IMG/VR virus record: IMGVR_UViG_3300032782_000005
Span: 1 to 64,000 of that record
Reading direction: 5' to 3' (one strand)
DNA from: a virus
Length of the DNA stretch: 64,000 nucleotides
Of this stretch, positions 21,837 to 38,175 are shown piece by piece. Within the stretch, counting starts at the first letter, position 1. Every line of letters starts with the position of its first letter. The position numbers and the translations under genes are program-made. The notes beneath the pieces were generated by a model, which made no database searches, was not told the origin of the DNA, and saw only the letters and a list, made by a program, of their open reading frames with translations.

Positions 21837-23090
21837 ATGAAGCCCTGCGGCCATCCCCCGGACCAGCCCGTCGAATCCTGCCGTGTGTGTTTCTTGTACT
21901 CCACCCGCCTCGACTACCGCGCCCTCTGGGACGCTACTGGTAATTTTACCAGTAGAAAATTGTCGTATCTCAAATGCGCCTTTTTAAGCCGCCGCGCCCG
22001 CAACGAAGACGGCACGGTGAAGACGCGAGCCTGCGCCCCCTGCGGCGGCAAACAACTGGAGGTATTCCGGTGCGTCTGTCCGTCGCTTAGAATCGGCGAA
22101 TCGGATCACGAGACGACGCTGGCCGAATGCGAGACGTGCCCACACAGGACGAGGGGAACGATGCCCGACGCGCGGAAACTGATCCTCAGGAACCACCTTT
22201 CCCCCGGCGACGTTCTCGTGATGACCGCCGCGATCCACTCGCTGCACAAGGCGCACCCCGGAAGGTTCCGGATCGCCGTCGATACAGCCTGCCCGGCGAT
22301 CTTCGAGAACAGCCCGGAGGTCGAGCCGCTGGATAAGGCGCGCGAGGAGAAATGGGAGGAAATGGATACGCATTATCCTTTGGTGAACGAGTGCAACCAG
22401 AGGGGCATCCATTTCATGCAAGCGTACTGCTCATATTTCGAGGACAATCTGCAAGTCCGCGTTCCACTGGCGACGAACAGGCCGATGGTGTGGCTCAGCG
22501 CCGAGGAGAAGGGCTGGATGAATCAGGTCGAGGAGGCGTTCAAATACAAGGGGAGGTTCTGGCTCGTCAACGCCGGGCGAAAGAATGACTACACCTGCAA
22601 GCACTGGGGAACGGAATCCTTCCAGCGCGTCGTCGATTCACTCCGGGGCAAGGTCGTGTTCGTGCAAGTCGGCGCGGCAGAGCATCATCATCCACCGCTC
22701 AGGAACGTCCTGAACCTCGTCGGCAAGACCGACCTGAGGCAATTGATCCGCCTCTGCTGGCACGCGGACGGCGTTCTGTGCGGCGTGACGATGCTCCACC
22801 ATTTGGCGGCGGCCCTGGAAAAACGCTGCGTGACGATCATGGGCGGGCGCGAGCCGGTCCAATGGAACTCGTACCCTCGTTGCCAACTCCTGCACACCAT
22901 CGGCTCGCTCTCCTGCTGTCGAGACGGAGGGTGCTGGAAGTCGCGCGTCATCGCCCTGCCCGACAACGCCGAACAGAACAACTCGCTTTGCGAGCAACCT
23001 CAACCGGGCGACGAACCGATTCCCCGTTGTATGAGCCTTATCCGCCCCGACGACGTGGCGTCGAAGGTCGCGCTCTTGACGACGGCATGA
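21837..23090 (+). CDS. GT9-family glycosyltransferase (heptosyltransferase-like)
   Basis: 417 residues. The N-terminal 95 residues are Cys/His-rich (CGHPPDQPVESCRVC, CAPCGGKQLEVFRCVC, CETCPHR), probably a zinc-binding module seen in planctomycete proteins. The rest follows the GT9 layout: LILRNHLSPGDVLVMTAAIHSLHKAHPGRF, FWLVNAGRKNDYTCKHWG, VVFVQVG, NLVGKTDLRQLIRLCWHADGVLCGVTMLHHLAAALEK, which is the donor-site motif of ADP-heptose transferases. A palindromic repeat is read in frame after RALW (TGNFTSR). It heads the glycosylation island and has a leaderless-type start. Confidence 0.75.
   Translation: MKPCGHPPDQPVESCRVCFLYSTRLDYRALWDATGNFTSRKLSYLKCAFLSRRARNEDGTVKTRACAPCGGKQLEVFRCVCPSLRIGESDHETTLAECETCPHRTRGTMPDARKLILRNHLSPGDVLVMTAAIHSLHKAHPGRFRIAVDTACPAIFENSPEVEPLDKAREEKWEEMDTHYPLVNECNQRGIHFMQAYCSYFEDNLQVRVPLATNRPMVWLSAEEKGWMNQVEEAFKYKGRFWLVNAGRKNDYTCKHWGTESFQRVVDSLRGKVVFVQVGAAEHHHPPLRNVLNLVGKTDLRQLIRLCWHADGVLCGVTMLHHLAAALEKRCVTIMGGREPVQWNSYPRCQLLHTIGSLSCCRDGGCWKSRVIALPDNAEQNNSLCEQPQPGDEPIPRCMSLIRPDDVASKVALLTTA
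21934..21955 (-). repeat. 22-bp palindromic repeat, copy inside the GT9 gene
   Basis: Perfect arms around TT (+ strand). The A/T flank AATTTT lies on the minus side, so the element is inverted relative to 12862. It is translated as TGNFTSR in a linker between the Cys-rich N-terminal segments. Confidence 0.95.
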
Positions 23091-23104
23091 GGCCGGGTTA
23101 CTAT
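23076..23104 (+). promoter_or_regulatory. Sigma70-like promoter, leaderless type
   Basis: TTGACG (23076-23081), 17-bp spacer, TACTAT (23099-23104), then eight bases to the ATG at 23113. It straddles the stop of the GT9 gene. No ribosome site precedes the ATG, so transcription would begin at or next to the start codon. Confidence 0.6.
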
Positions 23105-23112
23105 CCCTCCAC

Positions 23113-23250
23113 ATGGGAACCGCGCTGAGGGAATTAAAGACCTGCTTGCGTTGCGGATGGCGCTGGTTTTCGCGCAAGCCGTTCCCGCCGCGCTGTCCGA
23201 ACCCGAAGTGCCGAAGCCCATACTGGAACAAGCCAAAGGCGAAGTTATGA
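23113..23250 (+). CDS. Small zinc-ribbon protein, 45 aa
   Basis: MGTALRELKTCLRCGWRWF, then CPNPKCRSPYWN: two CxxC-type pairs spaced as in the 'KCLRCGHxWxxR...CPxCxSPYW' zinc ribbons that are common in phages. It ends with ATGA overlap to the next gene. It may bind nucleic acid or act as a small regulator. Confidence 0.75.
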   Translation: MGTALRELKTCLRCGWRWFSRKPFPPRCPNPKCRSPYWNKPKAKL

Positions 23251-23720
23251 TTGCCTCGGAATGCCGCTGCTGCGAAATGAACGCCGCCGACCGCCCTTCA
23301 TGGGGAGACGGTCCGTGGGCCAACGAGCCGGATCGCGCCGAATGGGAACACAATGGTCTGCCTTGCATCACTCACCGTGGCGGAAACGGCGCATGGTGCG
23401 GTTACGTCGGCGTGCCTCCAACTCACCCGTTGCACGGCAAGCGCTACGGCGAGGTTGACTTGGAGGTGCATGGCGGCCTGACCTATTCGGACGCTTGCCA
23501 TGGCCACATCTGCCACACTCCCAAGCCGGGCGAGGGCGACGATGTGTGGTGGTTCGGGTTTGACTGCGCTCATGCCTTTGATCTCTGTCCGACCATCGAC
23601 GCGAAAATGCGAGATTACATCTTCCACGGCATACCAGAAGGCCACTACTGGACGCTGGAAGAGGTCCGCGCCGAAGTGAACCAGCTTGCCGATCAATTGG
23701 CGGCCTTGATGGTGAAGTGA
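23247..23720 (+). CDS. Hypothetical protein, 157 aa, Cys/His-rich
   Basis: ATGA overlap. The protein has a CRCCEMN start and then a HGKRYGEVDLEVHGGLTYSDACHGHICHTP stretch followed by WWFGFDCAHAFDLCP, a pattern seen in phage proteins that may bind metal through Cys and His. The C-terminal WTLEEVRAEVNQLADQLAAL is a helix. No enzyme family is certain. Confidence 0.6.
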   Translation: MIASECRCCEMNAADRPSWGDGPWANEPDRAEWEHNGLPCITHRGGNGAWCGYVGVPPTHPLHGKRYGEVDLEVHGGLTYSDACHGHICHTPKPGEGDDVWWFGFDCAHAFDLCPTIDAKMRDYIFHGIPEGHYWTLEEVRAEVNQLADQLAALMVK

Positions 23721-23920
23721 TGGGCTACTTCCCCGGCTACGACAACGAACCATGCTGGTTCTGTGGTCGCTCAGACTGCAACGGCAACCATTCAGGACCG
23801 TCGGCTGACGCGGCGCGGGAGAGGATCACGCACTTCGAGCGCGGCTTCGGCCATCCGTCTTGCCCGTGTCAGTCGTGCCGCGAAATGCGTGAACGGGAAG
23901 CGAACCGGAGGAAGGAATGA
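23720..23920 (+). CDS. Small zinc-binding-like protein, 66 aa
   Basis: TGATG start overlap. CWFCGRSDCNGNH and CPCQSCREMRERE give several Cys/His ligands for zinc; the C-terminus is a charged helix. Its stop overlaps the groES start (ATGA). Confidence 0.55.
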   Translation: MGYFPGYDNEPCWFCGRSDCNGNHSGPSADAARERITHFERGFGHPSCPCQSCREMREREANRRKE

Positions 23921-24216
23921 AGTCGGACAAGAAGATCATCCCCCTTGGCGACCGCGTTCTCCTGCGTCTATCCGAGCCGCAGAAGCAGCAGGGCCGCATC
24001 CTCCTGCCCGAGAAGTTCGCTCCCAAACCGCAGAGCGGGGAAGTGCTTGCGGTGGGGCCGGACTGCAAGTGCGAAAAGAGCATGAAAGGCGATGAGCAGC
24101 GCATTCGCCCAGAAATGGTCGTCATCTTCAACCAGTACGCCGGCACCACTGTCCCCGGCGACGACACACTCCTTCTGATCCGCGAGGACGAGTTGCTGGG
24201 GGTCATGGAAGCGTGA
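23917..24216 (+). CDS. groES: GroES-like co-chaperonin
   Basis: 99 residues, the normal length. It starts IIPLGDRVLLRLSEPQKQQGRILLPEKF, has the GEVLAVGPDCK strand and ends VVIFNQYAGTTVPGDDTLLLIREDELLGVM, all in order for a 10-kDa chaperonin lid. The mobile-loop tip is KQQGRILLP. It would cap the host GroEL; phage versions (T4 gp31) are needed to fold large virion proteins. Here it is embedded in the glycosylation island, so its clients could be those enzymes or the head protein. No GroEL is seen. Confidence 0.9.
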   Translation: MKSDKKIIPLGDRVLLRLSEPQKQQGRILLPEKFAPKPQSGEVLAVGPDCKCEKSMKGDEQRIRPEMVVIFNQYAGTTVPGDDTLLLIREDELLGVMEA

Positions 24217-24467
24217 GAAGCCCCGATCTAGCCTCTTGGCATTCCAGTCGGGTCGCTAAACTCGTTGAGGCGGCGCGTTACAACGAGGCTCTTGACGAAG
24301 AAAACGACCGTCTGAAGCCTTCAGGGGAAGAGACGTTGTTCGTGGATGGCCTGCGAGCGCTGGGATTCAGCGACAAGCAGATCAGACTTCTTCATGAGGT
24401 CGATTCCCTGCTCTGCAAGTCATGCCGCGACGACTGGGCAGGTTGCCGTTGCTGGGACGATTCGTAA
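24213..24467 (+). CDS. Hypothetical protein, 84 aa
   Basis: GTGA overlap with groES. Mostly helical and acidic (RVAKLVEAARYNEALDEENDRL, GLRALGFSDKQIRLLHEVDSL), ending with CKSCRDDWAGCRCWDDS, a small Cys cluster. Unknown function. Confidence 0.5.
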   Translation: MRSPDLASWHSSRVAKLVEAARYNEALDEENDRLKPSGEETLFVDGLRALGFSDKQIRLLHEVDSLLCKSCRDDWAGCRCWDDS

Positions 24468-24480
24468 TCGGAGTCATGGA

Positions 24481-24678
24481 ATGAAACTGACCAAGGGCGA
24501 CTGGCTCCTTCGCCTCACCGAGGTCGAGGACGACCTTCTCCGGGCGCGAGAATGTCGCTTCGGCCATTACCGCGACAGAGACATCATCGCGTTGGAGGCT
24601 TATCTTCAATGGCTCGAGAGCAAGGCACGGAAAGCGGGGTGGGAGAGTCCGACGCAGACCGTTTCGAGGCCGTCCTGA
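24481..24678 (+). CDS. Hypothetical protein, 65 aa
   Basis: ATG shortly after the previous stop. Helical (WLLRLTEVEDDLLRARECRFG, IIALEAYLQWLESKARKAG). It overlaps the next start by 70 bp in another frame. No family recognised. Confidence 0.45.
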   Translation: MKLTKGDWLLRLTEVEDDLLRARECRFGHYRDRDIIALEAYLQWLESKARKAGWESPTQTVSRPS

Positions 24679-24818
24679 AAGAACTGGTCTCTACCGTCCG
24701 CGAGGCCATCGAGAAACGAAAGAACATGGGCGACCACCGGCAGCGCAAACGGCTGGAGGCCGCGCTGGAGGCGTACACGGTGCTGGTCGAGGAGTTGTAC
24801 GGGAGCGAACGCGAATGA
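24609..24818 (+). CDS. Hypothetical helical protein, 69 aa
   Basis: ATG with GAGG upstream, inside the end of the previous gene. One long amphipathic helix (DRFEAVLKELVSTVREAIEKR, KRLEAALEAYTVLVEELYG). ATGA overlap with the following fusion enzyme. No family recognised. Confidence 0.5.
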   Translation: MAREQGTESGVGESDADRFEAVLKELVSTVREAIEKRKNMGDHRQRKRLEAALEAYTVLVEELYGSERE

Positions 24819-26683
24819 GCGTGCTTTATCTGGCCTTTAACGGCCACCCCGACATGGGCCAGTTCCTCGGCGACACCATCGTCTCCGTCAAGGCGGCGTA
24901 CCTGATGGCGCGGGCAACTCCCTGCTCGCGCTACCTGCTCGGCCTCTCCCCCAAATCCCCACTCAACTTCCTCTGGGACAAGTTCATCGAGACCTTCCAC
25001 GTCGAGGTCGTCTACGACACGTTCCATCCGGGGAACATGGACCAACGGTTCGACAGTTGGAACAAGGCGTTCAACCGCCGCGAGATCGACGGGCGGAAAT
25101 TCGACCACTACCGCGAACTCTACCGGCGGATCGACGGAGGCCACAGGCAGGGCGTTCTCTGCGGCGGTGAGCGCGGATTGGGTCGAAAGAACGTCTTCGA
25201 GTACGTCTACTATGGCCAGGAGAACAAGCCAGAAGGGCCATGCGAAGGCGGCGCGGAGTTTGCCGACGACCTGATCGCGCATCCCGTCGTCCCACCAGAA
25301 TACGACGTGCTGATCGCGCCCTATGCCAAATGCCAGGGCAACGGGACGTTCACGTTTGCGTTCTGGGACAGAGTGACTCGCTTGCTTGTGGAGAGCGGCG
25401 TCAAGGTCACGGTCAACCATCACGGAGAGTTCTGCGAGGACCTGAAAGCCGGCGGTCTCTACCGTCGCATCTACCCTCCGTTCAAGGACCTGCTCCCCGA
25501 AGTCTGTCGTCACCGCCTCGTGTCCTGTGGGAACACTGGCGTCGGCTGGGTCGCAGGCGCCTGCGGAATTCCGCTTCTGGCCATGCAGCCGCCCGACTCG
25601 AACATGCAGGACTACCGTTACGAATGGTGCGGCGTGCAATCCCTGCGCGAGTTTGTGGAGGACCCCGATGCCGAGTACGTCGTCAAACGGATTCAGGAGG
25701 AACTGGAAACGAGGACGGTGCTCACCACGGGCTGCTTCGACATACTCCATGCAGGCCACATACGCCACCTTGAGGAATCGCGCTCATTCGGAAATCGTCT
25801 GGTCGTGGCGCTCAATTCCGACGCTTCCGTCCGCTCCCTCAAGGGCGCGGATCGCCCCATACACAATCAGGCCGAAAGGGAATTCGTCTTGAGGGCCATG
25901 CGCTGCGTCGATGACGTTCAGGTCTTCGACGGCGACAACGCCCTTCGTCTGATTCACAAACTTCGCCCCGCGGTCCTGACCAACGGCTCCGACCACAAAC
26001 TGGAAGAGATCGTCGGCAAGGACTTCGTGGAATCCTACGGTGGAAAGGTGGTCGTCACCGACGGCTCGCGCACACAGACTTCAACCAGGATCATCCAGAC
26101 CGTCATCAAGCAGGTGGACGTTCTGACGGCATGTCGGGAGGCCGCCAATCTGAGCCCGAACCCGTTCCCAAAGATGAAGCTCCTGGCCGATCAGTTCCTG
26201 TCGGTGAAGGACTTGCCAGCCGCCGCAGCGGACGTTGGAGCATACCGGGGGGCATGTTCCCTCGTCATGCGGCGGCTGGCGCCGGAGAAGGAGCTGCACC
26301 TGTTCGACACATGGTCGGGCAATCCCCACGAGGACCCGCTATGTCACCACAGAAAAGGGGAATGGGCCGCCGACCTCGCCGAGTGCAAGAAGGTCGTGGG
26401 TTCAGACGCACGAACCCATTACCACGTCGGCGTCTTCCCCGAATCGGTGAATGGCGAATCGTCGGCGAGGTTCTGCTTCGTCGTGATCGACGGCGACACT
26501 TACCAGACCACAAAGGACGCCATCGCCTTCTTCTGGCCCCGCCTAGTCGAGGGCGGGAAGCTGTTCATCGACGATTACGATTGGCAACCATGCGCTGGCG
26601 TCCGCAAGGCCGTGGACGAGGCGTTCACGGACGCACAGCGGACAGTGTTCGGCAGCGAGAAAACCTGCGTGGTGAAGAAATGA
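24815..26683 (+). CDS. Three-domain enzyme: GT9-like, HldE-type nucleotidyltransferase, TylF-like methyltransferase
   Basis: 622 residues. Residues 1-295: GT9-like fold (LGDTIVSVKAAYLMAR; later LVSCGNTGVGWVAGACGIPLLAM as donor site). Residues 300-430: cytidylyltransferase-like domain with TTGCFDILHAGHIRHLEES (intact HxGH) and TSTRII. Residues about 455-622: SAM-dependent methyltransferase of the TylF/macrocin type (DVGAYRGACSLVMRRLAP, ELHLFDTWSGNP, FVVIDGDTYQTTKDAIAFFWPRL, GKLFIDDY). It could activate a sugar phosphate, transfer it and methylate it in one chain. The order of domains is clear; substrates are inferred from the HldE homologue at 36817. Confidence 0.75.
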   Translation: MSVLYLAFNGHPDMGQFLGDTIVSVKAAYLMARATPCSRYLLGLSPKSPLNFLWDKFIETFHVEVVYDTFHPGNMDQRFDSWNKAFNRREIDGRKFDHYRELYRRIDGGHRQGVLCGGERGLGRKNVFEYVYYGQENKPEGPCEGGAEFADDLIAHPVVPPEYDVLIAPYAKCQGNGTFTFAFWDRVTRLLVESGVKVTVNHHGEFCEDLKAGGLYRRIYPPFKDLLPEVCRHRLVSCGNTGVGWVAGACGIPLLAMQPPDSNMQDYRYEWCGVQSLREFVEDPDAEYVVKRIQEELETRTVLTTGCFDILHAGHIRHLEESRSFGNRLVVALNSDASVRSLKGADRPIHNQAEREFVLRAMRCVDDVQVFDGDNALRLIHKLRPAVLTNGSDHKLEEIVGKDFVESYGGKVVVTDGSRTQTSTRIIQTVIKQVDVLTACREAANLSPNPFPKMKLLADQFLSVKDLPAAAADVGAYRGACSLVMRRLAPEKELHLFDTWSGNPHEDPLCHHRKGEWAADLAECKKVVGSDARTHYHVGVFPESVNGESSARFCFVVIDGDTYQTTKDAIAFFWPRLVEGGKLFIDDYDWQPCAGVRKAVDEAFTDAQRTVFGSEKTCVVKK

Positions 26684-27303
26684 GCGGCGAAGCCTACGAC
26701 GAGTCGTACTTCCTTCGCGGCAAGGAAACAGGCAAGTCGTGCTACACGAACTACTCATGGATGCCGATGCTGACGATCCCCATGGCGCGGGTGATGGCCG
26801 CCCGGCTGGGGATCAAGCCCGAAGAGACGATCTGCGACTTCGGCGCGGCCAGGGGCTACGTCGTCAAGGCGTTCCGCGAACTCGGCTACACGGCGTTCGG
26901 CGTCGATGCCTCACAATGGGCCGTGGAAAATTGTCACCCCGACGTGAAGCCGTTCCTGACCTGCGACAAGCGGGTGAGCCGTTACTACGACTGGATCATC
27001 GCCAAGGACGTTCTGGAGCATGTCGTCGAACTTGAGGCGACGGTCGAGAACTTGATGCAGAAGGCGCACGTCGGCCTCTTCGTCGTCGTGCCGCTGTCCG
27101 CGAAGGACGGAGAGCGCTACATAGCCGAAGAATATGAACTGGACATGACCCACGTTCACCGACTGACGCTGGCGACATGGGCGGCGATGTTCATTCGCCC
27201 CGGTTGGTCGGTCGAGGCGACCTACCGCGCCAAGGGCATCAAGGACAGTTGGGACCACCTGGGGCCGTGCAACGGATTCTTGGTTGTTAAGAGGAACGGC
27301 TGA
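26680..27303 (+). CDS. Class I SAM-dependent methyltransferase
   Basis: 207 residues, ATGA overlap. ICDFGAARGYVVKAFRELGYTAFGVDAS is motif I with the glycine-rich SAM loop; YYDWIIAKDVLEHV is the post-motif with the DVLEH signature; LFVVVPLS follows. This is the UbiE/ubiquinone-type layout often found in sugar O-methyltransferases. Target unknown; probably a sugar given the neighbours. Confidence 0.8.
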   Translation: MSGEAYDESYFLRGKETGKSCYTNYSWMPMLTIPMARVMAARLGIKPEETICDFGAARGYVVKAFRELGYTAFGVDASQWAVENCHPDVKPFLTCDKRVSRYYDWIIAKDVLEHVVELEATVENLMQKAHVGLFVVVPLSAKDGERYIAEEYELDMTHVHRLTLATWAAMFIRPGWSVEATYRAKGIKDSWDHLGPCNGFLVVKRNG

Positions 27304-28130
27304 TGAAGACGCTTGGGGCGTGCTTGAACTTTTTTAATGAGGCAGACGCCCTCCCAGGCTGGCTCGAATCCGCTTCGCGCTGGGCCGACGACATTGCCGC
27401 CTACCAGGCCGGTCCGAACGGCGAGGAAAGCGACGATGGCTCCATTGAGATACTGGAAAAGTGGCGCATCCCCATCCACCGCGGCTCGATCAACGAGGGC
27501 TTCGGCATCGTCCGCACGGCGGCTGTCAGAGCCTGCAAGACGGACTACGTGATGCTGCTCGACGCCGACGAACGATTCCTCCACTCGGGCCAGGTTCTGA
27601 CCTGTTCGGGTGAGAACACATCGCTGGAAGTTGAGCAACAGGTCTTGCAGGAGTACGACACCGGCGAGCCGGGCCAATGTCCGGCCAACTGGGAGAACCT
27701 GTCTAAACTGGGCGCGAAACTGTCCGTCTCGTTCGGCGAAGTATACAACCAGGCGGCCTGGGTCAAGGACTTCATCCAGCACGGCGACCTCGACGCCGTG
27801 TGCATGATCCGCCGCCACTGGCACGACTTCACCTTCAAGCGCCCCACGCAGAACTGGCACACGCGGCCGGACTACCAGATTCGGCTGGTGCGCAACCGCG
27901 ACGACGTTCACTGGGACGCCAACACGAAGATGCACGAGACGCTGGTTCCTGGCAACCGGAACATCTACCAGCCCAACCACACCCACGGCCCCTTCTACGA
28001 CCACTTCCACTGCTTCTTCAAGAGGCTGTCTCCCCTCAAGCGCCAGTTCGCCGTGCGCGTTTACCGTGCCATCCATTACGGTCACGCGGTGCCGTCGTGG
28101 AAGGCGTTCAAGAAGGAGTACGGCGGGTGA
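27303..28130 (+). CDS. GT2-type glycosyltransferase
   Basis: 275 residues; starts one base inside the previous stop (TGATG). The GT-A core is visible: LGACLNFFNEADALPGWLES, then SDDGSIEILEKWR, YVMLLDADERFL (metal-binding DAD), and a C-terminal HTHGPFYDHFHCFFKR segment. Shape and size match family 2 enzymes that use nucleotide sugars. The acceptor is not known. Confidence 0.75.
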   Translation: MKTLGACLNFFNEADALPGWLESASRWADDIAAYQAGPNGEESDDGSIEILEKWRIPIHRGSINEGFGIVRTAAVRACKTDYVMLLDADERFLHSGQVLTCSGENTSLEVEQQVLQEYDTGEPGQCPANWENLSKLGAKLSVSFGEVYNQAAWVKDFIQHGDLDAVCMIRRHWHDFTFKRPTQNWHTRPDYQIRLVRNRDDVHWDANTKMHETLVPGNRNIYQPNHTHGPFYDHFHCFFKRLSPLKRQFAVRVYRAIHYGHAVPSWKAFKKEYGG

Positions 28131-28792
28131 AGACTTTGCTGCTGACCGGCTACGACGACGCATTCGCGCCGCTGGGTAAACTGACCGAGCCGCTGATGCT
28201 CGCCTATGCCAAGCGCCAAGGCTTCACTTTCGCGTGCATGAGGGAGGGTCTGGGCAACACGGAACACCCGTCGTGGTGGAAGATGCGTCGCCTCCTGAGC
28301 GCCTTCGACCTTCCGCCGAAATCATCCTATTCGCCTTATCACGACGGTTCCGGCCTCTGTGACCACGTGATCTGGATGGACGCCGACATGGTGATAACCA
28401 ACCCCCATTTCGTCCCGCCGGGCGAATCGGGCTATCACTGCTCGCGCGACTGGGGGCAGGACGCGACCGAGCCGTGGATGCTGACCAACTGCTGCTTCGC
28501 CGCCTTCCCCGACAGCCTGCCCCTGATCCGGTGGGTGCTGGAACACAAGGACGATTATTCCTGCGAGTTTCACGAACAGAACCATGTGCGCGAGGCGGCC
28601 AGGGGTCCGTTCAAGGGCGTGATTCACGTCCACCCCAGCCGCGTTTTCTCCGCCGTACCCGTCGAGATTCACCCCAGCGTGCGCGAGCCGTGGCGGCCGG
28701 GGGACTGGGCGGCGCACCTGACGATGGTTCCACTGGCCGAGCGTGTGCGTCTAGCCCGTGAGTTCATCAAACGCACAAAAGGGGCATGGTGA
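28127..28792 (+). CDS. GT34-like glycosyltransferase
   Basis: 221 residues from GTG overlapping the previous stop. YAKRQGFTFACMREG, WWKMRRLLSAF and VIWMDADMVITNPHF are the hallmarks of galactosyl/mannosyltransferases of the GT34 type, where the DAD binds the metal and sugar nucleotide. It ends with LAEFIKR-like helices and overlaps the radical SAM gene by 7 bp. Confidence 0.75.
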   Translation: MKTLLLTGYDDAFAPLGKLTEPLMLAYAKRQGFTFACMREGLGNTEHPSWWKMRRLLSAFDLPPKSSYSPYHDGSGLCDHVIWMDADMVITNPHFVPPGESGYHCSRDWGQDATEPWMLTNCCFAAFPDSLPLIRWVLEHKDDYSCEFHEQNHVREAARGPFKGVIHVHPSRVFSAVPVEIHPSVREPWRPGDWAAHLTMVPLAERVRLAREFIKRTKGAW

Positions 28793-30285
28793 AGCCAGTC
28801 TGCCTCGTCATCCCGCCGTCCTGCTTCCTCCTGGACGAGCGCGTGTTTATGTCGCTCGGCGTCCTGCGCGTCGCCGCCGTCTTGGAACGCGCCGGCGTTC
28901 CCGTCGAGATTCTGGACTTGTCCGGGATTATGAATTACGAGGAAGCCGTCCGATTCCACGCCCGCCACTTTAGCGGGTGGACTTACGGGATCACCGCCAC
29001 GACCCCGCAGATGCCGGCCGTCGCGCGGATCGTCTCCGTGCTGCGGGAGCAGATCGGCCTGCGTCTGATCCTGGGCGGCCCGCACGTCACGCTGGTCCAC
29101 GCGGCCTTCAAGAAAGGCGCCGCCCGCGCCGGCGAAGCGCTGTCGCGGTTGAAAGAGATGTTTGACGTGCTGGTGGCCGGCGATGGAGAGGGGGCTATCT
29201 TTGCCGCCGTCGCGGTCGAAGCGCCCCGCCTGATCGACGCCGACGACCCCAAGGGGCCGTACTTCCTGACCGACGCCCGCTACGAGAGCCTGCCCTGGGC
29301 CGCCCGGCATCTGGTGGACGTGAGGAGTTACCACTACTCCATCGACGGAGTTCCGGCCCTGTCGATGATCGCGCAGCTAGGCTGCCCGTTCGCCTGCGCC
29401 TTCTGCGGAGGGCGCGAGTCGCCCATGCTGCGCCGCATCCGCACGAGGTCCACCGAAAGCATCGTCGCCGAAATGGCGCATTTGCATGAGGCCTACGGCG
29501 TGCGTGGGCTCATGTTCTACGACGACGAGTTGAACGTGAACAGGCAGGTCGTTGAACTCATGGACGCCATCGCCGCGATGGGGATTGACTGGCACTTGCG
29601 CGGCTTCGTCAAGGCGGAACTGTTCACCGACCGTCAGGCCGAGGCCATGTACCGCGCCGGCTTCCGCTGGCTCCTGGTCGGCTTTGAGTCGGGTTCGCCA
29701 CGGGTTCTGGAAAACATCAACAAGAAGGCCACGCGCGAGGACAACACGCGCTGCCTGCGGACGGCGCGAAGGCACGGTCTGAAAGTCAAGGCGCTCATGT
29801 CGCTGGGTCACGCGGGGGAGAGTCTGCGTACGGTTCAGGACACGGAGGATTGGTTGCTGGAAGAAAGGCCGGACGACTTCGACGCCACGGTGATTACCAC
29901 CTACCCCGGAACCCCGTACTACGATCGCGCCGTCGAGACGACGCCCGGAATATGGACATACACCGCCAGGTCGGGGGACCGCCTGCACGCCTGCGAGACG
30001 GACTTCCAGGGAGAGGCGGTCTACTACAAGGGGATTCCGGGGCAATACAAATCCTTCGTCTTCACCGATCATTTGTCGGCCGACGAGATCGTGGCCCTGC
30101 GCGACTGCTTGGAGGCCGACGTGCGGCGTCAACTGGGCGTTCCGTTTAACGCGGGCGCCCCTGGCGTTCGCTATGAGGCGTCGATGGGGATGCTGCCGGG
30201 ACACATCCTGCGGCGGTCGATGACGGATCATGAGCAACAGCGGCTTCTCGATTGGGAGCCGATCCCTGACTTCTGCGGAGATTGA
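28786..30285 (+). CDS. B12-binding-domain radical SAM enzyme
   Basis: 499 residues. The N-terminal 170 residues form a cobalamin-binding-like domain (LGVLRVAAVLERAGVPVEILDLSG, TATTPQMPAVARIVSVLRE, LGGPHVTL). The radical SAM cluster motif is QLGCPFACAFCGG (CxxxCxxC). LVGFESGSPRVLENINKKA is the conserved SAM-barrel strand of this group, and LKVKALMSLGHAGES follows. Enzymes of this class methylate carbon atoms or rearrange sugars and lipids. It starts 7 bp inside the GT34-like gene. Substrate unknown. Confidence 0.85.
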   Translation: MVKPVCLVIPPSCFLLDERVFMSLGVLRVAAVLERAGVPVEILDLSGIMNYEEAVRFHARHFSGWTYGITATTPQMPAVARIVSVLREQIGLRLILGGPHVTLVHAAFKKGAARAGEALSRLKEMFDVLVAGDGEGAIFAAVAVEAPRLIDADDPKGPYFLTDARYESLPWAARHLVDVRSYHYSIDGVPALSMIAQLGCPFACAFCGGRESPMLRRIRTRSTESIVAEMAHLHEAYGVRGLMFYDDELNVNRQVVELMDAIAAMGIDWHLRGFVKAELFTDRQAEAMYRAGFRWLLVGFESGSPRVLENINKKATREDNTRCLRTARRHGLKVKALMSLGHAGESLRTVQDTEDWLLEERPDDFDATVITTYPGTPYYDRAVETTPGIWTYTARSGDRLHACETDFQGEAVYYKGIPGQYKSFVFTDHLSADEIVALRDCLEADVRRQLGVPFNAGAPGVRYEASMGMLPGHILRRSMTDHEQQRLLDWEPIPDFCGD

Positions 30286-30287
30286 AC

Positions 30288-31349
30288 GTGCCTAGGATCG
30301 TCGTCGCCATTACACACAGTTACACGTGGTTCTGGACGCAGGCGTGCTTGGCCGCGCTGAAGCGGACGCTGGCCGAGGGCGCGGCGGACGGCTTCGGCGT
30401 GGAGATCGTGGTCGTCGATAATTCGTGGGAGAATAGTCCGTCCATTTACGGCGTCACGAAGACGCGACTGGGCGAGGGCGTGCGGGTCGTCGAGAACAAG
30501 GTCTTGCACAGCCACTCGGTCGCCATCGACATTGCGTTCAAGTCATCCTGGCCGATGGACTACTTCGTCCCCATCGACAGCGACTGCATCGTCATGCGCC
30601 CGAGTTGGCTCACGGAGTTCCTTTCTCGCCTGCGCCCAACGGACTACGGCATTGGCGCGCTTCACTCCGAACTCGGCGTCTGCTGTTCCTTCGCCTTGTA
30701 CAACGCTCAGGCCGTCAAGCGGATGGCCGATGCGAGCGCCGCGAACCCCGACCGCCATTTCCGGTGGGGCGACGGCTTCGCGCTATCCGAGCCGATCCCA
30801 GATGGTCACGAAGAAATCCTGAAAGGCCCGTTCTCCGACCGGCGCGGCTGGCCGCCCGGAACGGTTCTGAGGGAGAGGCCGGCGGGTTTGACGCGCGGTC
30901 CGGGCTGGTACGAGCCGGGTCAGATGTTCCACTTCTGGGCCTTGGAGGCAGGCTACACTTATTCGATCTGCCCGTCCCGGACGATCCGCGACGACGCGCG
31001 GGGCATACCGCTGGGCACGTTCTACGGCGTCGATCCGGCGCTGCCGATGGGCTACAACGAGTGCCGCGACGCCTGCTGGGCCGTCCACTTCTGGGGCGGG
31101 ACGCGCGCCCAGGATATGGTCAATTTGCAGGGCGGAAGTCTGACCGATCCGGCGATCATCAGCAACATCGGCTTCTGGCTGGAGAGGGAGGCCGGTTGGT
31201 GGATGAATCAGGTCCCCGCCGACGTTCGCGCCGAGACGCTGAACCTCATCAGGGAATACGGGTGGGTGCGCAAGGTGAGGCCGGACGCCCGCCCTGATTC
31301 ACTGACGCGAATGAAGGCGTGGTACAAGGCCGGAGGCGTCGATCTGTGA
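30288..31349 (+). CDS. GT2-like glycosyltransferase, second copy
   Basis: 353 residues from GTG 30288, seven bases after GGAG (TTG at 30282 is the alternative). Family 2 features: VVAITHSYTWFWTQACLAALKR, VEIVVVDNSWENSP, YFVPIDSDCIVMRPSWL (DSD metal motif). The C-terminal half (GPGWYEPGQMFHFWALEAGYTY, AVHFWGGTRAQD) is specific to this protein. The last four bases overlap the aminotransferase gene. Confidence 0.75.
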   Translation: MPRIVVAITHSYTWFWTQACLAALKRTLAEGAADGFGVEIVVVDNSWENSPSIYGVTKTRLGEGVRVVENKVLHSHSVAIDIAFKSSWPMDYFVPIDSDCIVMRPSWLTEFLSRLRPTDYGIGALHSELGVCCSFALYNAQAVKRMADASAANPDRHFRWGDGFALSEPIPDGHEEILKGPFSDRRGWPPGTVLRERPAGLTRGPGWYEPGQMFHFWALEAGYTYSICPSRTIRDDARGIPLGTFYGVDPALPMGYNECRDACWAVHFWGGTRAQDMVNLQGGSLTDPAIISNIGFWLEREAGWWMNQVPADVRAETLNLIREYGWVRKVRPDARPDSLTRMKAWYKAGGVDL

Positions 31350-32449
31350 AGCCAATCCCTCTGTTCAAGGTCTTCATGCACCCGGACGCCTCGCCGGCCG
31401 TGGCGAAGGTGCTGGAGAGCGGCTACGTCGGCCAGGGTCCGCGCGTCGAGAAGTTTGAGAACGAATTGCGATGCCACTTCAATTATCCGTGGATCAACAC
31501 GCTCAACAGCGCCACGTCTGGGTTGCAGTTGGCCGTCCACATGCTCAAGGGAACGTACCCTGACACCGAAGTTCTGACGACGCCGCTGACCTGCACGGCG
31601 ACCAGTTTCGCCATTCTTGCCGAAGGGCTGAAGATTCGCTGGGCGGACGTGGACCCTAACACGGGCAACATGGATTTGAACGATGCGTGCCGCAAAATAA
31701 ACGCCAACACGCTCGCCATTATGGTAGTGCATTGGGGTGGATATCCTTGCGACCTTGATCGCATTGAGGCGATTCGCAAAGGGTGCAAGATGATGTTCGT
31801 CATCGAGGACTGCGCCCATGCGTGGGGCGCGACCTATCGAGGCAAGCCCATCGGGGCGCACGGCAACACGGCCGTCTTTTCGTTCCAGGCCATCAAGCAC
31901 CTGACGACCGGCGACGGCGGCTGCATGGTCTCGCCAAATGAGGCCCACTACCGTCGGGCCAAACTCCTCCGCTGGTACGGCCTCGACCGCGACAGCTCCG
32001 CCGACTTCCGCTGCGCCCAGAACGTGAAGGAATGGGGCTTCAAGTTCCACATGAACGACATCGCCGCGAGCATCGGGCTGGCAAACTTTCCATACGTCGA
32101 TGGGTTGGTGGGCGTCCACCGTTCCAATGGCCGCTTCTACAACAAGGCGCTGGCAAGCACGCCCGGCCTGACTCTGATGGAGAACAAGCCGGACCGTGAA
32201 TCCTCCTTCTGGGTCTACACCGTCCGCGTGGAGGACCGAGATGGCTTCGTCCGTAAGATGACGGAGAAGGGAATCGCCGTCAGCCAGGTCCACGCCCGCA
32301 ACGACAAGCACGACTGCGTGAAGGAGTTCCGCTGTCACCTGCCGGGGATGGATATTCTGGAGCGGGAGATGATCTGCATCCCTTGCGGCTGGTGGGTGAC
32401 GGCGGAGGACCGCGAGTACATCGTCGATTGCATCAGGGAGGGATGGTGA
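31346..32449 (+). CDS. DegT/DnrJ/EryC1-type sugar aminotransferase
   Basis: 367 residues from GTG overlapping the previous stop. LESGYVGQGPRVEKFE, INTLNSATSGLQLAVHML, VIEDCAHAWGATY (pyridine-binding Asp) and FSFQAIKHLTTGDGGCM (PLP lysine followed by GDGG) are in the family order, as is KWGxxFHMND-like KEWGFKFHMNDIAASIG. These enzymes transfer an amino group to 3- or 4-keto nucleotide sugars. With the acetyltransferase that follows it would make an N-acylated amino sugar. Confidence 0.9.
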   Translation: MKPIPLFKVFMHPDASPAVAKVLESGYVGQGPRVEKFENELRCHFNYPWINTLNSATSGLQLAVHMLKGTYPDTEVLTTPLTCTATSFAILAEGLKIRWADVDPNTGNMDLNDACRKINANTLAIMVVHWGGYPCDLDRIEAIRKGCKMMFVIEDCAHAWGATYRGKPIGAHGNTAVFSFQAIKHLTTGDGGCMVSPNEAHYRRAKLLRWYGLDRDSSADFRCAQNVKEWGFKFHMNDIAASIGLANFPYVDGLVGVHRSNGRFYNKALASTPGLTLMENKPDRESSFWVYTVRVEDRDGFVRKMTEKGIAVSQVHARNDKHDCVKEFRCHLPGMDILEREMICIPCGWWVTAEDREYIVDCIREGW

Positions 32450-33030
32450 TGGAATACCTCTACCGACACCGGAACGGCATCCTGTTCCGCCGCGTCAATG
32501 CGGGCGACCTGTCGGACCTGACCGACCTCAAGAACGAGAGTTGGTTCGGCACGCACCGCATCTCCTTCGTCAGCGCGGACAGTCAGAGGCGATGGCTGGA
32601 GGCGCTGGACCGCGAGAACGTTCACGCCCCCGGCAATCTAGTCCTCGTGGCCTGTACGGACGAGCCGGCAGACGACATGCCCGCCCCGGCGCCGCGTCCG
32701 AACCACGCCGGCCTGAGCAACGTCGGGGTGTTCAAGATACTAGGCATCGACTGGCAATCCCGCCGCGCCTCTGTCGGCTGGGACATTTACCGCCCCTATC
32801 GAGGCGAGGGCCTGGGCAAGAATCTGGTCGAGGCGGGAATCGCTTTCTGCTTCAACGTCCTGAACCTTCACCGTCTTCAGGCCGACGTGCTGGACACCAA
32901 CCACGCCTCGCAGAAGTGCGCACTGGCCGCCGGCTTCATCAAGGAAGGCTTCCAGCCCAGGTGCATCCTGCGGGGCGGGAAGTGGATCGACAACGTGATC
33001 TATGGGATCGTGGCCCCGGAACCGGAGTGA
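32449..33030 (+). CDS. GNAT-family N-acetyltransferase
   Basis: 193 residues, TGATG overlap with the aminotransferase. ASVGWDIYRPYRGEGLGKNLVEAGIAF carries the acetyl-CoA binding RGEGLG loop, and LHRLQADVLDTNHASQKCALAAGFIKEG is the typical last part of sugar/ribosomal N-acetyltransferases. Likely acetylates the amino sugar made by its neighbour (inference from context). Confidence 0.85.
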   Translation: MEYLYRHRNGILFRRVNAGDLSDLTDLKNESWFGTHRISFVSADSQRRWLEALDRENVHAPGNLVLVACTDEPADDMPAPAPRPNHAGLSNVGVFKILGIDWQSRRASVGWDIYRPYRGEGLGKNLVEAGIAFCFNVLNLHRLQADVLDTNHASQKCALAAGFIKEGFQPRCILRGGKWIDNVIYGIVAPEPE

Positions 33031-33033
33031 GGC

Positions 33034-34478: not shown

Positions 34479-34483
34479 AGAAG

Positions 34484-34528: not shown

Positions 34529-34563
34529 CCGAGGCCAGTCATGGAAGCCGCCTATAGAATAAT

Positions 34564-34593
34564 GAAGCCGGAGCGCGCGACCGCCCCGGCTTC
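34564..34593 (+). promoter_or_regulatory. Hairpin leader of HNH gene 2
   Basis: GAAGCCGG (34564-34571) and CCGGCTTC (34586-34593) around a 14-nt loop, preceded by TAGAAT (34555). The spacer to the ATG is 30 nt with GACACA, AACC and GGGGG. Same design as the leaders at 6555 and 46411. Confidence 0.65.
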
Positions 34594-34623
34594 CAGACAC
34601 AGCGAACCATGTGGGGGTCCGCC

Positions 34624-35301
34624 ATGCCGAAGAAAAGCCTATCCGTTCGCACCGATCTTGTCCACCGGCCTCCCCCTCCAGATGAAAACATCTCTGGCAA
34701 GGAATTCGGTCAGTGGAAAGTTCTTGAGTATGCCGGATCGAAACAGGGTCGGTGGTATCGCTGCCGCTGCTCATGCGGTTACATTGCCGTCGTTCATGGT
34801 GGAGAGTTAAAAGGAGGCCGTTCTTTGAGTTGCGGGCATGATGGATCGACTTACAGGCATGGCCATGGAAGTCGCGCGCATGAGAAAAGGCCAGCAGAAT
34901 ACAATGTGTGGGTTCTGATGCGTGACCGCTGCAATAACACAAACTCAAGGCACTACAAGAACTATGGTGGCCGTGGAATCAAAGTGTGTGAGCGATGGGA
35001 CGACTTCGCTGCCTTCCTCGCCGACATGGGGCCGCGCCCATCGCCGCAACACACCATCGACAGAATCAACAACGACGGCAACTACGAGCCAAGTAACTGC
35101 CGATGGGCGACGAGGGCTGAGCAGGCGAGGAACAAGAGAACGAACATCCAAATCTCGCACAATGGCACGGTCTTGTGTCTTGCGGAGTGGTGCAAGAAAT
35201 TGAATCTTCCTTATCTGCGGTCTTATCGTCGCCTCCGTAATGGCGAGAGCGTGACTGCAGTATTTGCTGAGAAAGGAGGTCAACCAAGCCATGACGACTG
35301 A
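34624..35301 (+). CDS. HNH/AP2-like homing endonuclease-type protein
   Basis: 225 residues. After a zinc-like CRCSCGYI and CGHDG stretch comes the conserved core of phage homing-type proteins: YNVWVLMRDRCNNTNSRHY, YGGRGIKVCERW, FAAFLADMGPRPSPQHTIDR and NNDGNYEPSNCRWATRAEQ, the His-Asn-Asn layout of this HNH group. It ends 11 bp inside the next gene's original start. It lies at a gene border behind its own leader and is A/T-richer than its neighbours, which fits a mobile gene. Confidence 0.75.
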   Translation: MPKKSLSVRTDLVHRPPPPDENISGKEFGQWKVLEYAGSKQGRWYRCRCSCGYIAVVHGGELKGGRSLSCGHDGSTYRHGHGSRAHEKRPAEYNVWVLMRDRCNNTNSRHYKNYGGRGIKVCERWDDFAAFLADMGPRPSPQHTIDRINNDGNYEPSNCRWATRAEQARNKRTNIQISHNGTVLCLAEWCKKLNLPYLRSYRRLRNGESVTAVFAEKGGQPSHDD

Positions 35302-35353
35302 AAAACCAGTCCGCATCCTGCTCTCGCTGAGAGGAGGGTATGGCTTGGGTTGA
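35291..35353 (+). pseudogene. Displaced N-terminus of the GT9 gene
   Basis: ATG at 35291 gives MTTEKPVRILLSLRGGYGLG then a stop. In GT9 enzymes this strand should run straight into GDVVTFGVILKHL, which is found in another frame just downstream. A near-tandem TTGGG/TTGAGGG duplication (about 35344-35354) adds seven bases and causes the break. It may be a mutation next to the HNH insertion, or an unusual recoding site. Confidence 0.55.
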
Positions 35354-36641
35354 GGGCGATGTCGTGACATTTGGCGTTATCCTGAAACACCTGCGAAAAC
35401 ACCGCCCCAACTGGCTTATCGACGTGGCCGCCCCGCGCGGTTCTCACTCCGCCCTCTTCGGCCTTTGCAACCGCGTCCTCTATCACGGCGAGCCGGAAGG
35501 CAAGTACGACAAGGCGGTGGACCTTGACCTGGAGGACTCCTACGTCCACTTCAAGGACCGTCCCAGCAGCAAGACCGTCTTCAACCTGCGTCTTCAGTTC
35601 GGTCTGGAATACGACCCGGAGTGCGGGGGCTACGAGATCGCTGTTGGGCCAGAGGCGACGGATCGCGCCGAGCGATGGCTGCGGAGCGTCATCAGTCCGA
35701 CGCCCGGCGTGTTCTCGCCGTATCCGGCGGTCGTCCTCCACTACCGCGGTGGCTCCAGCAAGGCTCGCAAGGACCTCGAACACTGGCAGGGCGAGGTTCT
35801 GGTCAACGCCATCCGCCAATCCGGACGCACGCCGATCCTTCTGGACTGGTCCGACTCTCCCATGGACGCCGTGCGCGTCCCCGACAAGGTGTGGGGAGGT
35901 TTCGGAAACGGCGACGCCGAGACGATGGCCGCCCTGATTAGGCTCTCGGAAGCCTTCATTGGCATCGACTCCGGGCCTGGCAAGGTTGCCTCGGCGACGG
36001 ACACGCCAAGCCTGATCGTCTGGACCAAGCATCATCCGGCGCGTTACCACGACCCTGCTCCGAACACCGAACATCTGATCCCGCACGACTGGCGGGGAAT
36101 GCAGCCGATCGAGTGGGACGCCGAACGGGAGAAATTCTTCACGGAGAACTACCGCTTCCGGACATACGCCGGCGAGCACGGTCTTGTGGGCGAGATCATC
36201 CAGTGGCTTCAGAAGACTCTGCGCTGGGAAGGCTGGCTCGACCCCGGCGTGAAGTTCGTGATCCCGGCTCGAATCGAATCGGCGGCGTGGGTGATGGCGA
36301 AGATCAGGAACATCGCCGGGAAGCGCGTCGCCGACTGCATCGTGTCGGCTCAGCCCGGCGACAGCGAGGGCCTGAAGGTTGTGGAGTTTGTGCGAAGCTT
36401 CGGCTTCTTCCGCGACGTGCGAGTTCTTCCCATTGCGGTGCATCAGGGTCCGGAGAAGCCACGGGACACGCGCGGACGCTATCTCTACGTCTCCGACGGT
36501 TTGAGGGACGGCTACCATTACCTCGTGCCGGATACCGTGTCCCAGTTAGGGAAGCCGTTGGCCGACTGGTTGCCGGACGTTCCGGCTGACTTCGAGATGG
36601 TCAAGAGGGCGGAGGAATGGCTGCAATTGACGAATGCTTGA
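35340..36641 (+). CDS. GT9-family glycosyltransferase, 5' end disrupted
   Basis: 433 residues from ATG 35340, though that start has its ribosome site only one base away. The GT9 order is present: GDVVTFGVILKHLRKHRPNW, AVVLHYRGGSSKARKDLEHW, and the donor site MAALIRLSEAFIGIDSGPGKVASAT. The natural N-terminus is encoded at 35291 in another frame. The C-terminal 130 residues (VKFVIPARIESAAWVMAKIRN, RVADCIVSAQPGDSEGLKVVEF) form an extra domain of unknown type. Expression level is uncertain. Confidence 0.65.
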   Translation: MAWVEGDVVTFGVILKHLRKHRPNWLIDVAAPRGSHSALFGLCNRVLYHGEPEGKYDKAVDLDLEDSYVHFKDRPSSKTVFNLRLQFGLEYDPECGGYEIAVGPEATDRAERWLRSVISPTPGVFSPYPAVVLHYRGGSSKARKDLEHWQGEVLVNAIRQSGRTPILLDWSDSPMDAVRVPDKVWGGFGNGDAETMAALIRLSEAFIGIDSGPGKVASATDTPSLIVWTKHHPARYHDPAPNTEHLIPHDWRGMQPIEWDAEREKFFTENYRFRTYAGEHGLVGEIIQWLQKTLRWEGWLDPGVKFVIPARIESAAWVMAKIRNIAGKRVADCIVSAQPGDSEGLKVVEFVRSFGFFRDVRVLPIAVHQGPEKPRDTRGRYLYVSDGLRDGYHYLVPDTVSQLGKPLADWLPDVPADFEMVKRAEEWLQLTNA

Positions 36642-36649
36642 GGCCCATC

Positions 36650-36820
36650 ATGTTCGGGGCCAAATGCTCGCGCTGCCCTTATTGGGTGAATATTTCAGCA
36701 AACGCGACTCATGAAGTGCGAGATTATTTGGTCGATAGCGGCTGGGAAATTCTGACGCAGCCAGTGCAATTGCTCTGTCCATGGTGCGTTGACAAAAAGA
36801 GGGCCAAGGAAAAGCCATGA
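36650..36820 (+). CDS. Small zinc-binding-like protein, 56 aa
   Basis: ATG 36650 follows GAGG at the end of the GT9 gene; ATG 36617 is an alternative. CSRCPYW and CPWCVDKK form two CxxC pairs separated by about 40 residues. ATGA overlap with the HldE-like gene. Function unknown. Confidence 0.55.
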   Translation: MFGAKCSRCPYWVNISANATHEVRDYLVDSGWEILTQPVQLLCPWCVDKKRAKEKP

Positions 36821-38175
36821 CTCCCATCGACCGACTGATCCAGTCCACGCAGGCGACCGAGAAGCGCATCGTCGTCCTCGGCGACTCGATGCGCGACGTT
36901 CATGTCCATGGCGACCTTCTCCCTTCCCAGGACGGCGTGCAGAAATTCGTGGAACGCCGCCGTCTTGAGACTCCCGGCGGCGCAGCGGGGGCGGCGCGGC
37001 AACTTTGCCGGTGGAGCGCGGAGACAATTCTGCTATCGGTCGGTCACTGTGGCGATCCTCCATACCACGAATCATGGAACGCTGTTGACTGGTCGCATTG
37101 CATGATGAGTCGTCGTATGCCCGAAAAGCACCGCTTCCTCGACGACTCCGGGCGCATCCTCTGGAGACACGACAAGGACCACGGCTACGGCGCTGACGCG
37201 AACCTGATGGAGTCGTGGCGGAAGACGATCCTGGAGCGGCTGTACGAGTTGGCCCCGGACGCCGTGCTGATTTCCGATTACGACAAGGGCTTCCTGACGG
37301 AGGCGATGATCCGCGAAGTCATCGGGTGGTGCAATGAGAAGGGCGTCCCGATTGTAGCGGACGCGAAGCGCGAGCCGAAAGTATACGACGGCGCGATCTT
37401 GAAATTCAACCACGACTATTGGCTCAACCACACGACAACAGGTAAGAGCGAAGTGATAACCTTGGGGGCCGAGCCTCCTGGGGTCAATGGCCGGGTGCTT
37501 CCTAAGATGGCCATTGGCGGCATTGTTTGCAAAAATCACGTCGGAGCTGGCGATTGCTTTTCCGCCACGCTCGCACTCGCCCTGGCTCACGGCTTCTCAT
37601 TGGAGGACGCCGCCGCCATCGCCCATTCCGCCGGACGCATTTACGTCCAGCATCTTCACGGTCGTCCGCCATGGCCTTTTGAGATTCGGCGCGACCTAAA
37701 TCCGGTCGGGGGAAAGGTCTTATCAGCGTTCGACCTCGCCGCCTTGTGTAGGGCGGCCCCCGGCCGGATTTGCTGGGCCAACGGGTGCTTTGACCTCCTC
37801 GGCCCACACCACGTCCAGTTCCTCCAGAATGCCCGCAGACAGGGCGATCTCCTGGTGGTCGGGCTGAACGACGACCAGAGCGTGAGGCGGCTTAAAGGGC
37901 CAAAACGCCCCATCATGGCCCTTCCCGAACGGACTGCCATGCTGGCAGCGCTCGATTGCGTGGATTGGGTCGTGCCGTTCTCCGCCGACGCCCCCGTGGA
38001 AGAACTGTCGGCGCTGCGTCCCCATGTGCGCGTCTGCGCCGACATTCCGGATCGCAACGGCGCCGGGGACGAATACGCAGGCGAGGTCAAACTGCTCCCG
38101 ATGGTTCCGCAGGCTTCAACCACGGCGATGGTGGAGAGGATAATCCGGTTGCAGCGAACCCCGTCTCCGGCGTAG
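36817..38175 (+). CDS. hldE-like: HldE-like bifunctional heptose kinase/nucleotidyltransferase
   Basis: 452 residues. Residues 1-300: PfkB kinase (VLGDSMRDVHVHGDLLP, ETPGGAAGAARQL, AVLISDYDKGF, GAGDCFSATLALALA with catalytic Asp). Residues 315-452: nucleotidyltransferase (CWANGCFDLLGPHHVQFLQNA, GLNDDQSVRRLKGPKRPI). HldE makes ADP-heptose precursors for lipopolysaccharide-like sugars. Here the HxGH motif is GPHH, so the first His is lost, and the kinase GGAxN motif also lacks its Asn. The intact HAGH domain in the fusion at 24815 may supply the adenylyl transfer. GmhA, GmhB and HldD are not in the window. Confidence 0.8.
   Translation: MTPIDRLIQSTQATEKRIVVLGDSMRDVHVHGDLLPSQDGVQKFVERRRLETPGGAAGAARQLCRWSAETILLSVGHCGDPPYHESWNAVDWSHCMMSRRMPEKHRFLDDSGRILWRHDKDHGYGADANLMESWRKTILERLYELAPDAVLISDYDKGFLTEAMIREVIGWCNEKGVPIVADAKREPKVYDGAILKFNHDYWLNHTTTGKSEVITLGAEPPGVNGRVLPKMAIGGIVCKNHVGAGDCFSATLALALAHGFSLEDAAAIAHSAGRIYVQHLHGRPPWPFEIRRDLNPVGGKVLSAFDLAALCRAAPGRICWANGCFDLLGPHHVQFLQNARRQGDLLVVGLNDDQSVRRLKGPKRPIMALPERTAMLAALDCVDWVVPFSADAPVEELSALRPHVRVCADIPDRNGAGDEYAGEVKLLPMVPQASTTAMVERIIRLQRTPSPA

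What the first reader, a model, noticed from the sequence alone, without database searches (positions are those of the whole stretch)
21837..38175. Phage glycosylation island that may decorate Ser-rich fibres
Sixteen kilobases carry three GT9-type domains, HldE-type enzymes, GT2 and GT34 enzymes, aminotransferase, acetyltransferase, methyltransferases and radical SAM enzymes, in the same genome as fibres with long Ser/Pro/Ala tracts (18946, 55964). Activated heptose could be placed on these serines, on the host surface (conversion), or on DNA.
Basis: inference. Interest (0 to 1): 0.72.

Follow-up and report, generated by a model that had tools for sequence, protein, structure and literature searches.

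The report
Phage sugar-making island beside tail genes
A bacterial virus carries a 16-kilobase block of sugar-building enzymes right after its tail genes; a related virus keeps the same three core sugar enzymes in the same order but has no long serine-rich fibres, so the block is real and probably coats the virus or its host, but there is no evidence that it decorates the serine tracts.

Summary
The island is real. Profile searches confirm two GT9 proteins, a full-length HldE-like protein, a second HldE-type nucleotidyltransferase domain fused to a TylF-type methyltransferase, GT2s, a DegT aminotransferase, a GNAT acetyltransferase and two radical-SAM enzymes. The third GT9 domain and the GT34 were not confirmed. 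A relative found here (G054, 58 kb) shares the head-tail gene order. At the same place it carries an inverted island that keeps only GT9a (56% identity), GT9c (44%) and HldE (37%), in the same coding order; the cargo between them is replaced. It has no long Ser-rich protein, only a 15-residue Ser-rich tail on the shared fibre-like protein. In this phage the HldE adenylyltransferase motif HxGH is lost (GPHH), while the fused domain keeps HAGH, so activation has probably moved to the fusion. DegT plus GNAT points to an N-acyl 4-amino-4,6-dideoxyhexose. The record has no epimerase/dehydratase or heptose isomerase, so the host must supply precursors. Most likely acceptor: the phage's own tail-module proteins; host envelope core is nearly as likely; DNA and lysogenic conversion are unlikely. 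This is a new variant of the sugar islands known in cyanophages and pelagiphages.

The parts
21837..23090 (+). GT9a: GT9 glycosyltransferase with Cys-rich N-terminus and a C-terminal Cys cluster (C360 C361 C366 C385 C398); conserved core gene
   Evidence: PF01075 E 1.8e-10; 56% identical homologue in G054; 31% homologue directly upstream of HldE in jumbo phage L122
23151..23720 (+). unknown ORF (189 aa) inside the island
   Evidence: no Pfam hit
24815..26683 (+). three-part protein: N-terminal ~295 aa (GT-like, unconfirmed), HldE-C type nucleotidyltransferase with intact HAGH, C-terminal TylF-type O-methyltransferase
   Evidence: PF01467 E 1.8e-13, PF05711 E 1.1e-10; TIGR02199 E 3.5e-46; motif; N-terminus unassigned
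26680..27303 (+). SAM methyltransferase
   Evidence: PF13489 E 3.7e-12
27303..28130 (+). GT2 glycosyltransferase
   Evidence: PF00535 E 1.4e-7
   Evidence: sequence only; no Pfam hit
28786..30285 (+). radical SAM enzyme with B12-binding domain
   Evidence: PF04055 E 1.8e-24, PF02310; best NCBIfam HpnJ/PhpK, far below cut-offs
30282..31349 (+). GT2-like glycosyltransferase (weak)
   Evidence: PF00535 E 0.0011, below cut-off
31346..32449 (+). DegT sugar aminotransferase, closest solved relatives 4zwv/4xau and CalS13
   Evidence: PF01041 E 3.9e-74; PDB E 4e-121; 208 viral relatives
32443..33030 (+). GNAT N-acetyltransferase, partner of DegT
   Evidence: PF13302 E 2.9e-12; weak PseH; neighbour pair conserved in L010
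33315..34478 (+). radical SAM enzyme, 32% identical to a Pelagibacter phage HTVC008M protein that lies in a sugar cluster
   Evidence: PF04055 E 1.1e-7
34609..35301 (+). HNH endonuclease inserted in the island
   Evidence: phrog_374 E 1.4e-62
35340..36641 (+). GT9c: GT9 glycosyltransferase, with an N-lobe remnant of a second GT9 domain; conserved core gene
   Evidence: PF01075 E 8.4e-5; 44% homologue with a complete second domain in G054
36817..38175 (+). HldE-like protein: PfkB kinase (GAGD intact) + nucleotidyltransferase with degenerate HxGH (GPHH); conserved core gene
   Evidence: PF01467 E 1.2e-11, PF00294; NF008454 E 4.5e-47, below cut-off; motif; 37% homologue in G054
17961..18938 (+). 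fibre-like protein at the end of the tail module; N-terminal domain shared with 18946 and with G054
18946..19866 (+). Ser-rich protein next to the island (proposed acceptor)
   Evidence: no family; no homologue with a long Ser tract in G054
55964..57862 (+). Ser-rich protein, 33% Ser (proposed acceptor), 18 kb from the island
   Evidence: no family

Best explanation
The island assembles and attaches a variable glycan in the infected cell's cytosol. Step 1 (inferred): the kinase half of the HldE-like protein phosphorylates a heptose-like sugar phosphate supplied by the host. The intact HldE-C domain of the three-part protein activates it with ADP, taking over from the degenerate domain of the HldE-like protein. 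Step 2 (inferred): the two GT9 enzymes, which are conserved with HldE across relatives, transfer this sugar as the base of the glycan. Step 3 (inferred): DegT and GNAT turn the host's dTDP-4-keto-6-deoxyhexose into an N-acyl 4-amino sugar; GT2-type enzymes add it, and methyltransferases and radical-SAM enzymes cap or edit it. The acceptor is most likely a protein of the phage's own tail module, beside which the island sits in both relatives. The conserved core would set the attachment and the exchangeable cargo the outer structure, giving rapid change of the virion's surface.
For: Families. Core GT9a-GT9c-HldE kept in the same coding order beside the same module in G054 while the cargo differs. 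A GT9a homologue directly upstream of HldE in an unrelated jumbo phage. GT9 present in 24/50 HldE-bearing viral records against 7/50 DegT-bearing ones, p=4e-4, not corrected for kinship or record size. HAGH in the fusion, GPHH in the HldE-like protein, HAGH in the single HldE of G054; HxGH found in 68 of 79 distinct viral homologues. DegT nearest the 4zwv/4xau/CalS13 sugar aminotransferases, with GNAT next to it also in L010. Enzymes predicted soluble. Cyanophage S-SSM7 has HldE parts, GmhA and an epimerase among tail-fibre, coat and neck genes.
Against: No acceptor is shown. LPS-core heptosyltransferases are also soluble, so absence of membrane enzymes does not exclude the host envelope. NCBIfam scores for GT9 and HldE are far below equivalog cut-offs, so donor sugar and chemistry may differ. 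The protein O-heptosyltransferase model TIGR04414 does not match. Structure predictions were unusable.
Confidence: 0.42

Rival explanations
1. The island remodels the host envelope (for example the LPS core) during infection, blocking adsorption of competing phages or reabsorption of progeny.
For: The GT9 proteins match LPS heptosyltransferase models best. Authors of PMC7029224 read sugar islands with rfaE and glycosyltransferases beside tail fibres in pelagimyophages this way. Core heptosylation takes place in the cytosol, so soluble enzymes suffice.
Against: No integrase, so no sign of lysogeny where lasting conversion would pay; no flippase- or polymerase-like membrane protein in the island; matches are far below LPS equivalog cut-offs.
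Confidence: 0.36
2. One reading: heptose is placed on the serines of the Ser/Pro/Ala-rich proteins at 18946 and 55964.
For: Serine O-heptosylation from ADP-heptose is known for TibC/AAH (PMC4358343). A Ser-rich protein lies beside the island, and the shared fibre-like domain is followed by a Ser-rich stretch in all three copies, down to 15 residues in G054.
Against: G054 has the core island but no long Ser tract. Ser-rich ORFs occur in only 3 of 160 loci around DegT or HldE homologues. TIGR04414 (TibC/AAH) does not match. One Ser-rich protein lies 18 kb away.
Confidence: 0.12
3. The island modifies phage DNA (glycosylated bases) against restriction.
For: Phage glycosyltransferases can modify DNA (general knowledge; also stated in PMC7029224).
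Against: No thymidylate-synthase/hydroxymethylase relative in the record; aminosugar, methyl and radical-SAM cargo and GT9 homology do not fit known base modification.
Confidence: 0.04

Closest known systems
Host recognition cluster / sugar island of pelagimyophages (PMC7029224) and of cyanophages such as S-SSM7 (NC_015287)
   Same: Variable block of rfaE/HldE-type genes, glycosyltransferases, methyltransferases and related enzymes next to tail-fibre genes
   Different: Not a T4-like phage; has neither GmhA nor HldD; has a three-part fusion and a degenerate HldE; terminase only distantly similar to known phages
Islands of uncultured phages G045/G048 (found here)
   Same: HldE-C, kinase, GT9, DegT and GNAT together
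   Different: Fuller pathway with epimerases and an RmlA-like enzyme, carbamoyltransferases, separate small kinase and adenylyltransferase
TibC/AAH protein O-heptosyltransferases (PMC4358343)
   Same: GT-B enzymes using ADP-heptose, Cys4 metal motif in the C-lobe; GT9a has a Cys cluster near the same end
   Different: Model TIGR04414 does not match; Cys spacing differs; similar Cys motifs are common in GT9 (own knowledge)
Virion glycosylation of mycobacteriophages (Freeman et al. 2023, cited in PMC12691614)
   Same: Natural glycosylation of phage virion proteins (phage-encoded enzymes from memory)
   Different: Different enzymes and hosts; no activation pathway of this kind known to me there
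Viosamine (4-amino-4,6-dideoxyglucose) pathways of Mimiviridae (PMC10117803, PMC4691112)
   Same: Virus-encoded rare sugars made for surface fibrils (abstracts)
   Different: Eukaryotic giant viruses; from memory, complete UDP-sugar routes

Membership tests
HldE (bifunctional heptose kinase/adenylyltransferase) | two domains, PfkB kinase with GAGD and CTP_transf | tested here: met
   36817-38175: PF00294, PF01467, GAGD
HldE (bifunctional heptose kinase/adenylyltransferase) | intact HxGH in the nucleotidyltransferase | tested here: not met
   GPHH; HAGH is present in the separate domain of 24815-26683
HldE (bifunctional heptose kinase/adenylyltransferase) | score above the curated equivalog cut-off | tested here: not met
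   NF008454 160.7 bits against 521
LPS heptosyltransferase (WaaC/F/Q equivalogs) | GT9 family signature | tested here: met
   PF01075 over the cut-off for 21837 and 35340
LPS heptosyltransferase (WaaC/F/Q equivalogs) | equivalog cut-off of TIGR02193/02195/02201 | tested here: not met
   33.8 bits against 185 and lower
TibC/AAH autotransporter O-heptosyltransferase | match to TIGR04414 | tested here: not met
   no match at E<=10 in the whole record
Sugar 4-aminotransferase (DegT, AtmS13/CalS13-like) | full-length similarity and conserved PLP lysine region | tested here: met
   E 4e-121 over residues 4-367, SFQAIKHLTTGDGG aligned with SFQALKHLTCGDGG
Sugar 4-aminotransferase (DegT, AtmS13/CalS13-like) | acts on dTDP-4-keto-6-deoxyhexose | not testable with these tools
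   needs enzyme assay; the substrate of CalS13-type enzymes is from memory
Gtr-type serotype conversion cassette | membrane flippase (GtrA), polyprenyl transferase (GtrB), temperate phage | tested here: not met
   no multi-membrane protein in the island (crude hydropathy); no Phage_integrase domain
Phage sugar island in the host recognition cluster | variable glycan-enzyme block beside the tail module with conserved flanks | tested here: met
   ours and G054; only one flank is visible in the G054 fragment
DNA hypermodification | hydroxymethyl-pyrimidine synthase of the thymidylate synthase family | tested here: not met
   no PF00303 match

The most novel reading that the evidence does not exclude
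The three-part protein makes ADP-heptose (or a related sugar) and transfers it itself, with the crippled HldE-like protein kept only as the kinase. Together with the conserved GT9 pair they would form a compact, phage-owned protein O-heptosylation machine for virion proteins, with exchangeable outer sugars.
Probability: 0.13. Interest if true: 0.75.

Novelty: new variant of a known kind. Interest (0 to 1): 0.42.

Why it matters
It shows that a phage lineage unrelated to the T4-like cyanophages and pelagiphages keeps a fixed HldE plus twin-GT9 core at the end of the tail module while swapping the rest of the sugar cargo. That gives a concrete set of three genes for testing whether such islands coat virions or remodel hosts, a question that the published work read here answered only by inference.

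Tried and rejected
Single-sequence scans for HldE, the fusion and the helicase found no viral relatives. Terminase scans of genome contigs found no provirus, so the host could not be tested; a planctomycete host was suggested only by the N-terminus RLERLEDRTTPS at 948 (from memory), with no NCBIfam, plasmid or literature support. A scan with the fibre N-domain found nothing. AlphaFold models of the fusion N-terminus and GT9a had pLDDT 38 and 37 and were not used. TibC-type membership was rejected. The resemblance of the GT9a Cys cluster to the TibC iron finger was dropped as evidence because GT9 enzymes often carry such Cys (own knowledge). Viperin-like matches of the radical-SAM proteins were judged generic. 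DNA modification and lysogenic conversion were rejected for lack of enzymes.

Full report
Setting. The window is the first 64 kb of a 79,484-base linear virus record. All likely genes read here are on the + strand. Terminase, a major-head-like protein, ParB-like proteins, an Erf annealing protein, a helicase and a polymerase processivity factor mark it as a tailed phage. The island DNA has no match among 50,697 phage records, and the terminase is at most about 28% identical to theirs in the rows shown. The relative L090 (terminase 62%, capsid 65%) carries the genes of our 66.6-79 kb directly followed by those of 2-6 kb, so the two ends of the record adjoin in the genome.

Observation. Exceptions are a third GT9 domain and GT34. 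An HNH endonuclease breaks the island at 34609-35301. The Ser-rich ORFs are real reading frames but have no family match.

A syntenic relative. A viral-contig scan with an HldE alignment brought in G054 (58,428 bases). It matches our phage in gene order from terminase through capsid, portal-like and tail proteins to the fibre-like protein 17961. Right after that protein it has an island on the opposite strand. Its conserved members are HldE (37%), GT9c (44%) and, at the far end, GT9a (56%); in coding direction the order GT9a ... GT9c, HldE is the same as ours. The cargo between is different: another radical-SAM/SPASM protein, a glycosyltransferase and several methyltransferases, with no DegT or GNAT. 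So the site and core are conserved and the cargo is exchanged. Its 17961 homologue is about 116 residues long and ends in TSTSSASSASSSSSH, and no other credible ORF of the 58 kb is Ser-rich. G054 is a fragment, so a Ser-rich gene in the missing part cannot be excluded.

Who else has the parts. The DegT protein has at least 208 viral relatives. The nearest, in L010 (66%), sits beside a GNAT (53%) and lies with an HldE (31-35%) on the same contig, with no GT9 match and no Ser-rich protein in the DNA read. Of 50 DegT-bearing records 7 have GT9 and 12 a CTP_transf domain; of 50 HldE-bearing records 24 have GT9 (Fisher p 4e-4). The records are related to one another and differ in length, so the p value is only indicative. 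In the jumbo phage L122 a GT9a homologue is directly upstream of HldE. Several HldE phages carry GT9 domains behind TPR-like repeats (the repeats were judged by eye).

Chemistry. The HldE-like protein keeps the kinase GAGD but has GPHH in place of HxGH. HxGH is found in 68 of 79 distinct viral homologues, and none of the variants seen is GPHH. G054's single HldE keeps HAGH. The three-part protein 24815-26683 keeps HAGH and scores E 3.5e-46 to the HldE adenylyltransferase domain. The simplest reading is that activation moved to the fusion. DegT is closest to solved sugar aminotransferases including CalS13; from memory these act at C4 of dTDP-4-keto-6-deoxyglucose. With the GNAT this suggests an N-acyl 4-amino-4,6-dideoxyhexose. 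No Epimerase-type (PF01370) or SIS isomerase (PF13580) gene is in the record, so precursors must come from the host. Activity of every enzyme is inferred.

Acceptor. Shown: the island lies beside the tail module in two relatives, and its enzymes look soluble. Inferred: a cytosolic acceptor, either a virion protein or the host LPS core. I favour virion proteins slightly. Published readings of the comparable pelagimyophage islands favour the host O-chain (PMC7029224). Ser heptosylation has a biochemical precedent in TibC (PMC4358343), but its family model does not match and the comparative evidence is against long Ser tracts as the conserved target.

Verdict. A real, position-conserved, cargo-swapping glycan island: a new variant of a known kind. 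The specific idea of decorated Ser-rich fibres is weakened, not excluded.

Noticed in passing
2044, 12862, 21934, 34507, 43872, 57891 (window); also 48581 (variant) and about 64657 and 70232 of the 79-kb record: A dispersed 22-bp palindrome CTACTGGTAAWWTTACCAGTAG, six copies in the window against 0 in 100 shuffles; not found in the relative G054. Three copies lie inside ORFs and all read TGNFTS in frame; the genome has two ParB-like proteins that might bind it.
   Followed up: partly
35340-36641: GT9c has lost the C-lobe of a second GT9 domain that is complete in G054.
   Followed up: yes
34609-35301: HNH endonuclease inside the sugar island, just after one palindrome copy; possible homing element.
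   Followed up: no
40215-41618: Papain-family cysteine protease (PF00112 E 1.3e-30) with a hydrophobic, signal-like N-terminus and a Pro-rich tail, just after the island.
   Followed up: no
948-1871: Protein beginning MKPRLERLEDRTTPS, reminiscent (from memory) of planctomycete surface proteins; no match to it in L090 at the same place. Host not established.
   Followed up: partly
L121, L133, L176, L124, L127, L154: HldE-bearing viral contigs carry GT9-like proteins with TPR-like N-terminal repeats a few kilobases from HldE; TPR-linked glycosyltransferases often act on proteins (own knowledge).
   Followed up: no
L112:15410-17785: The G054 homologue of 12720-15230 seems to carry an intein-like insert with an HNH/homing-type ORF on the other strand in the head-protein gene (read by eye).
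   Followed up: no
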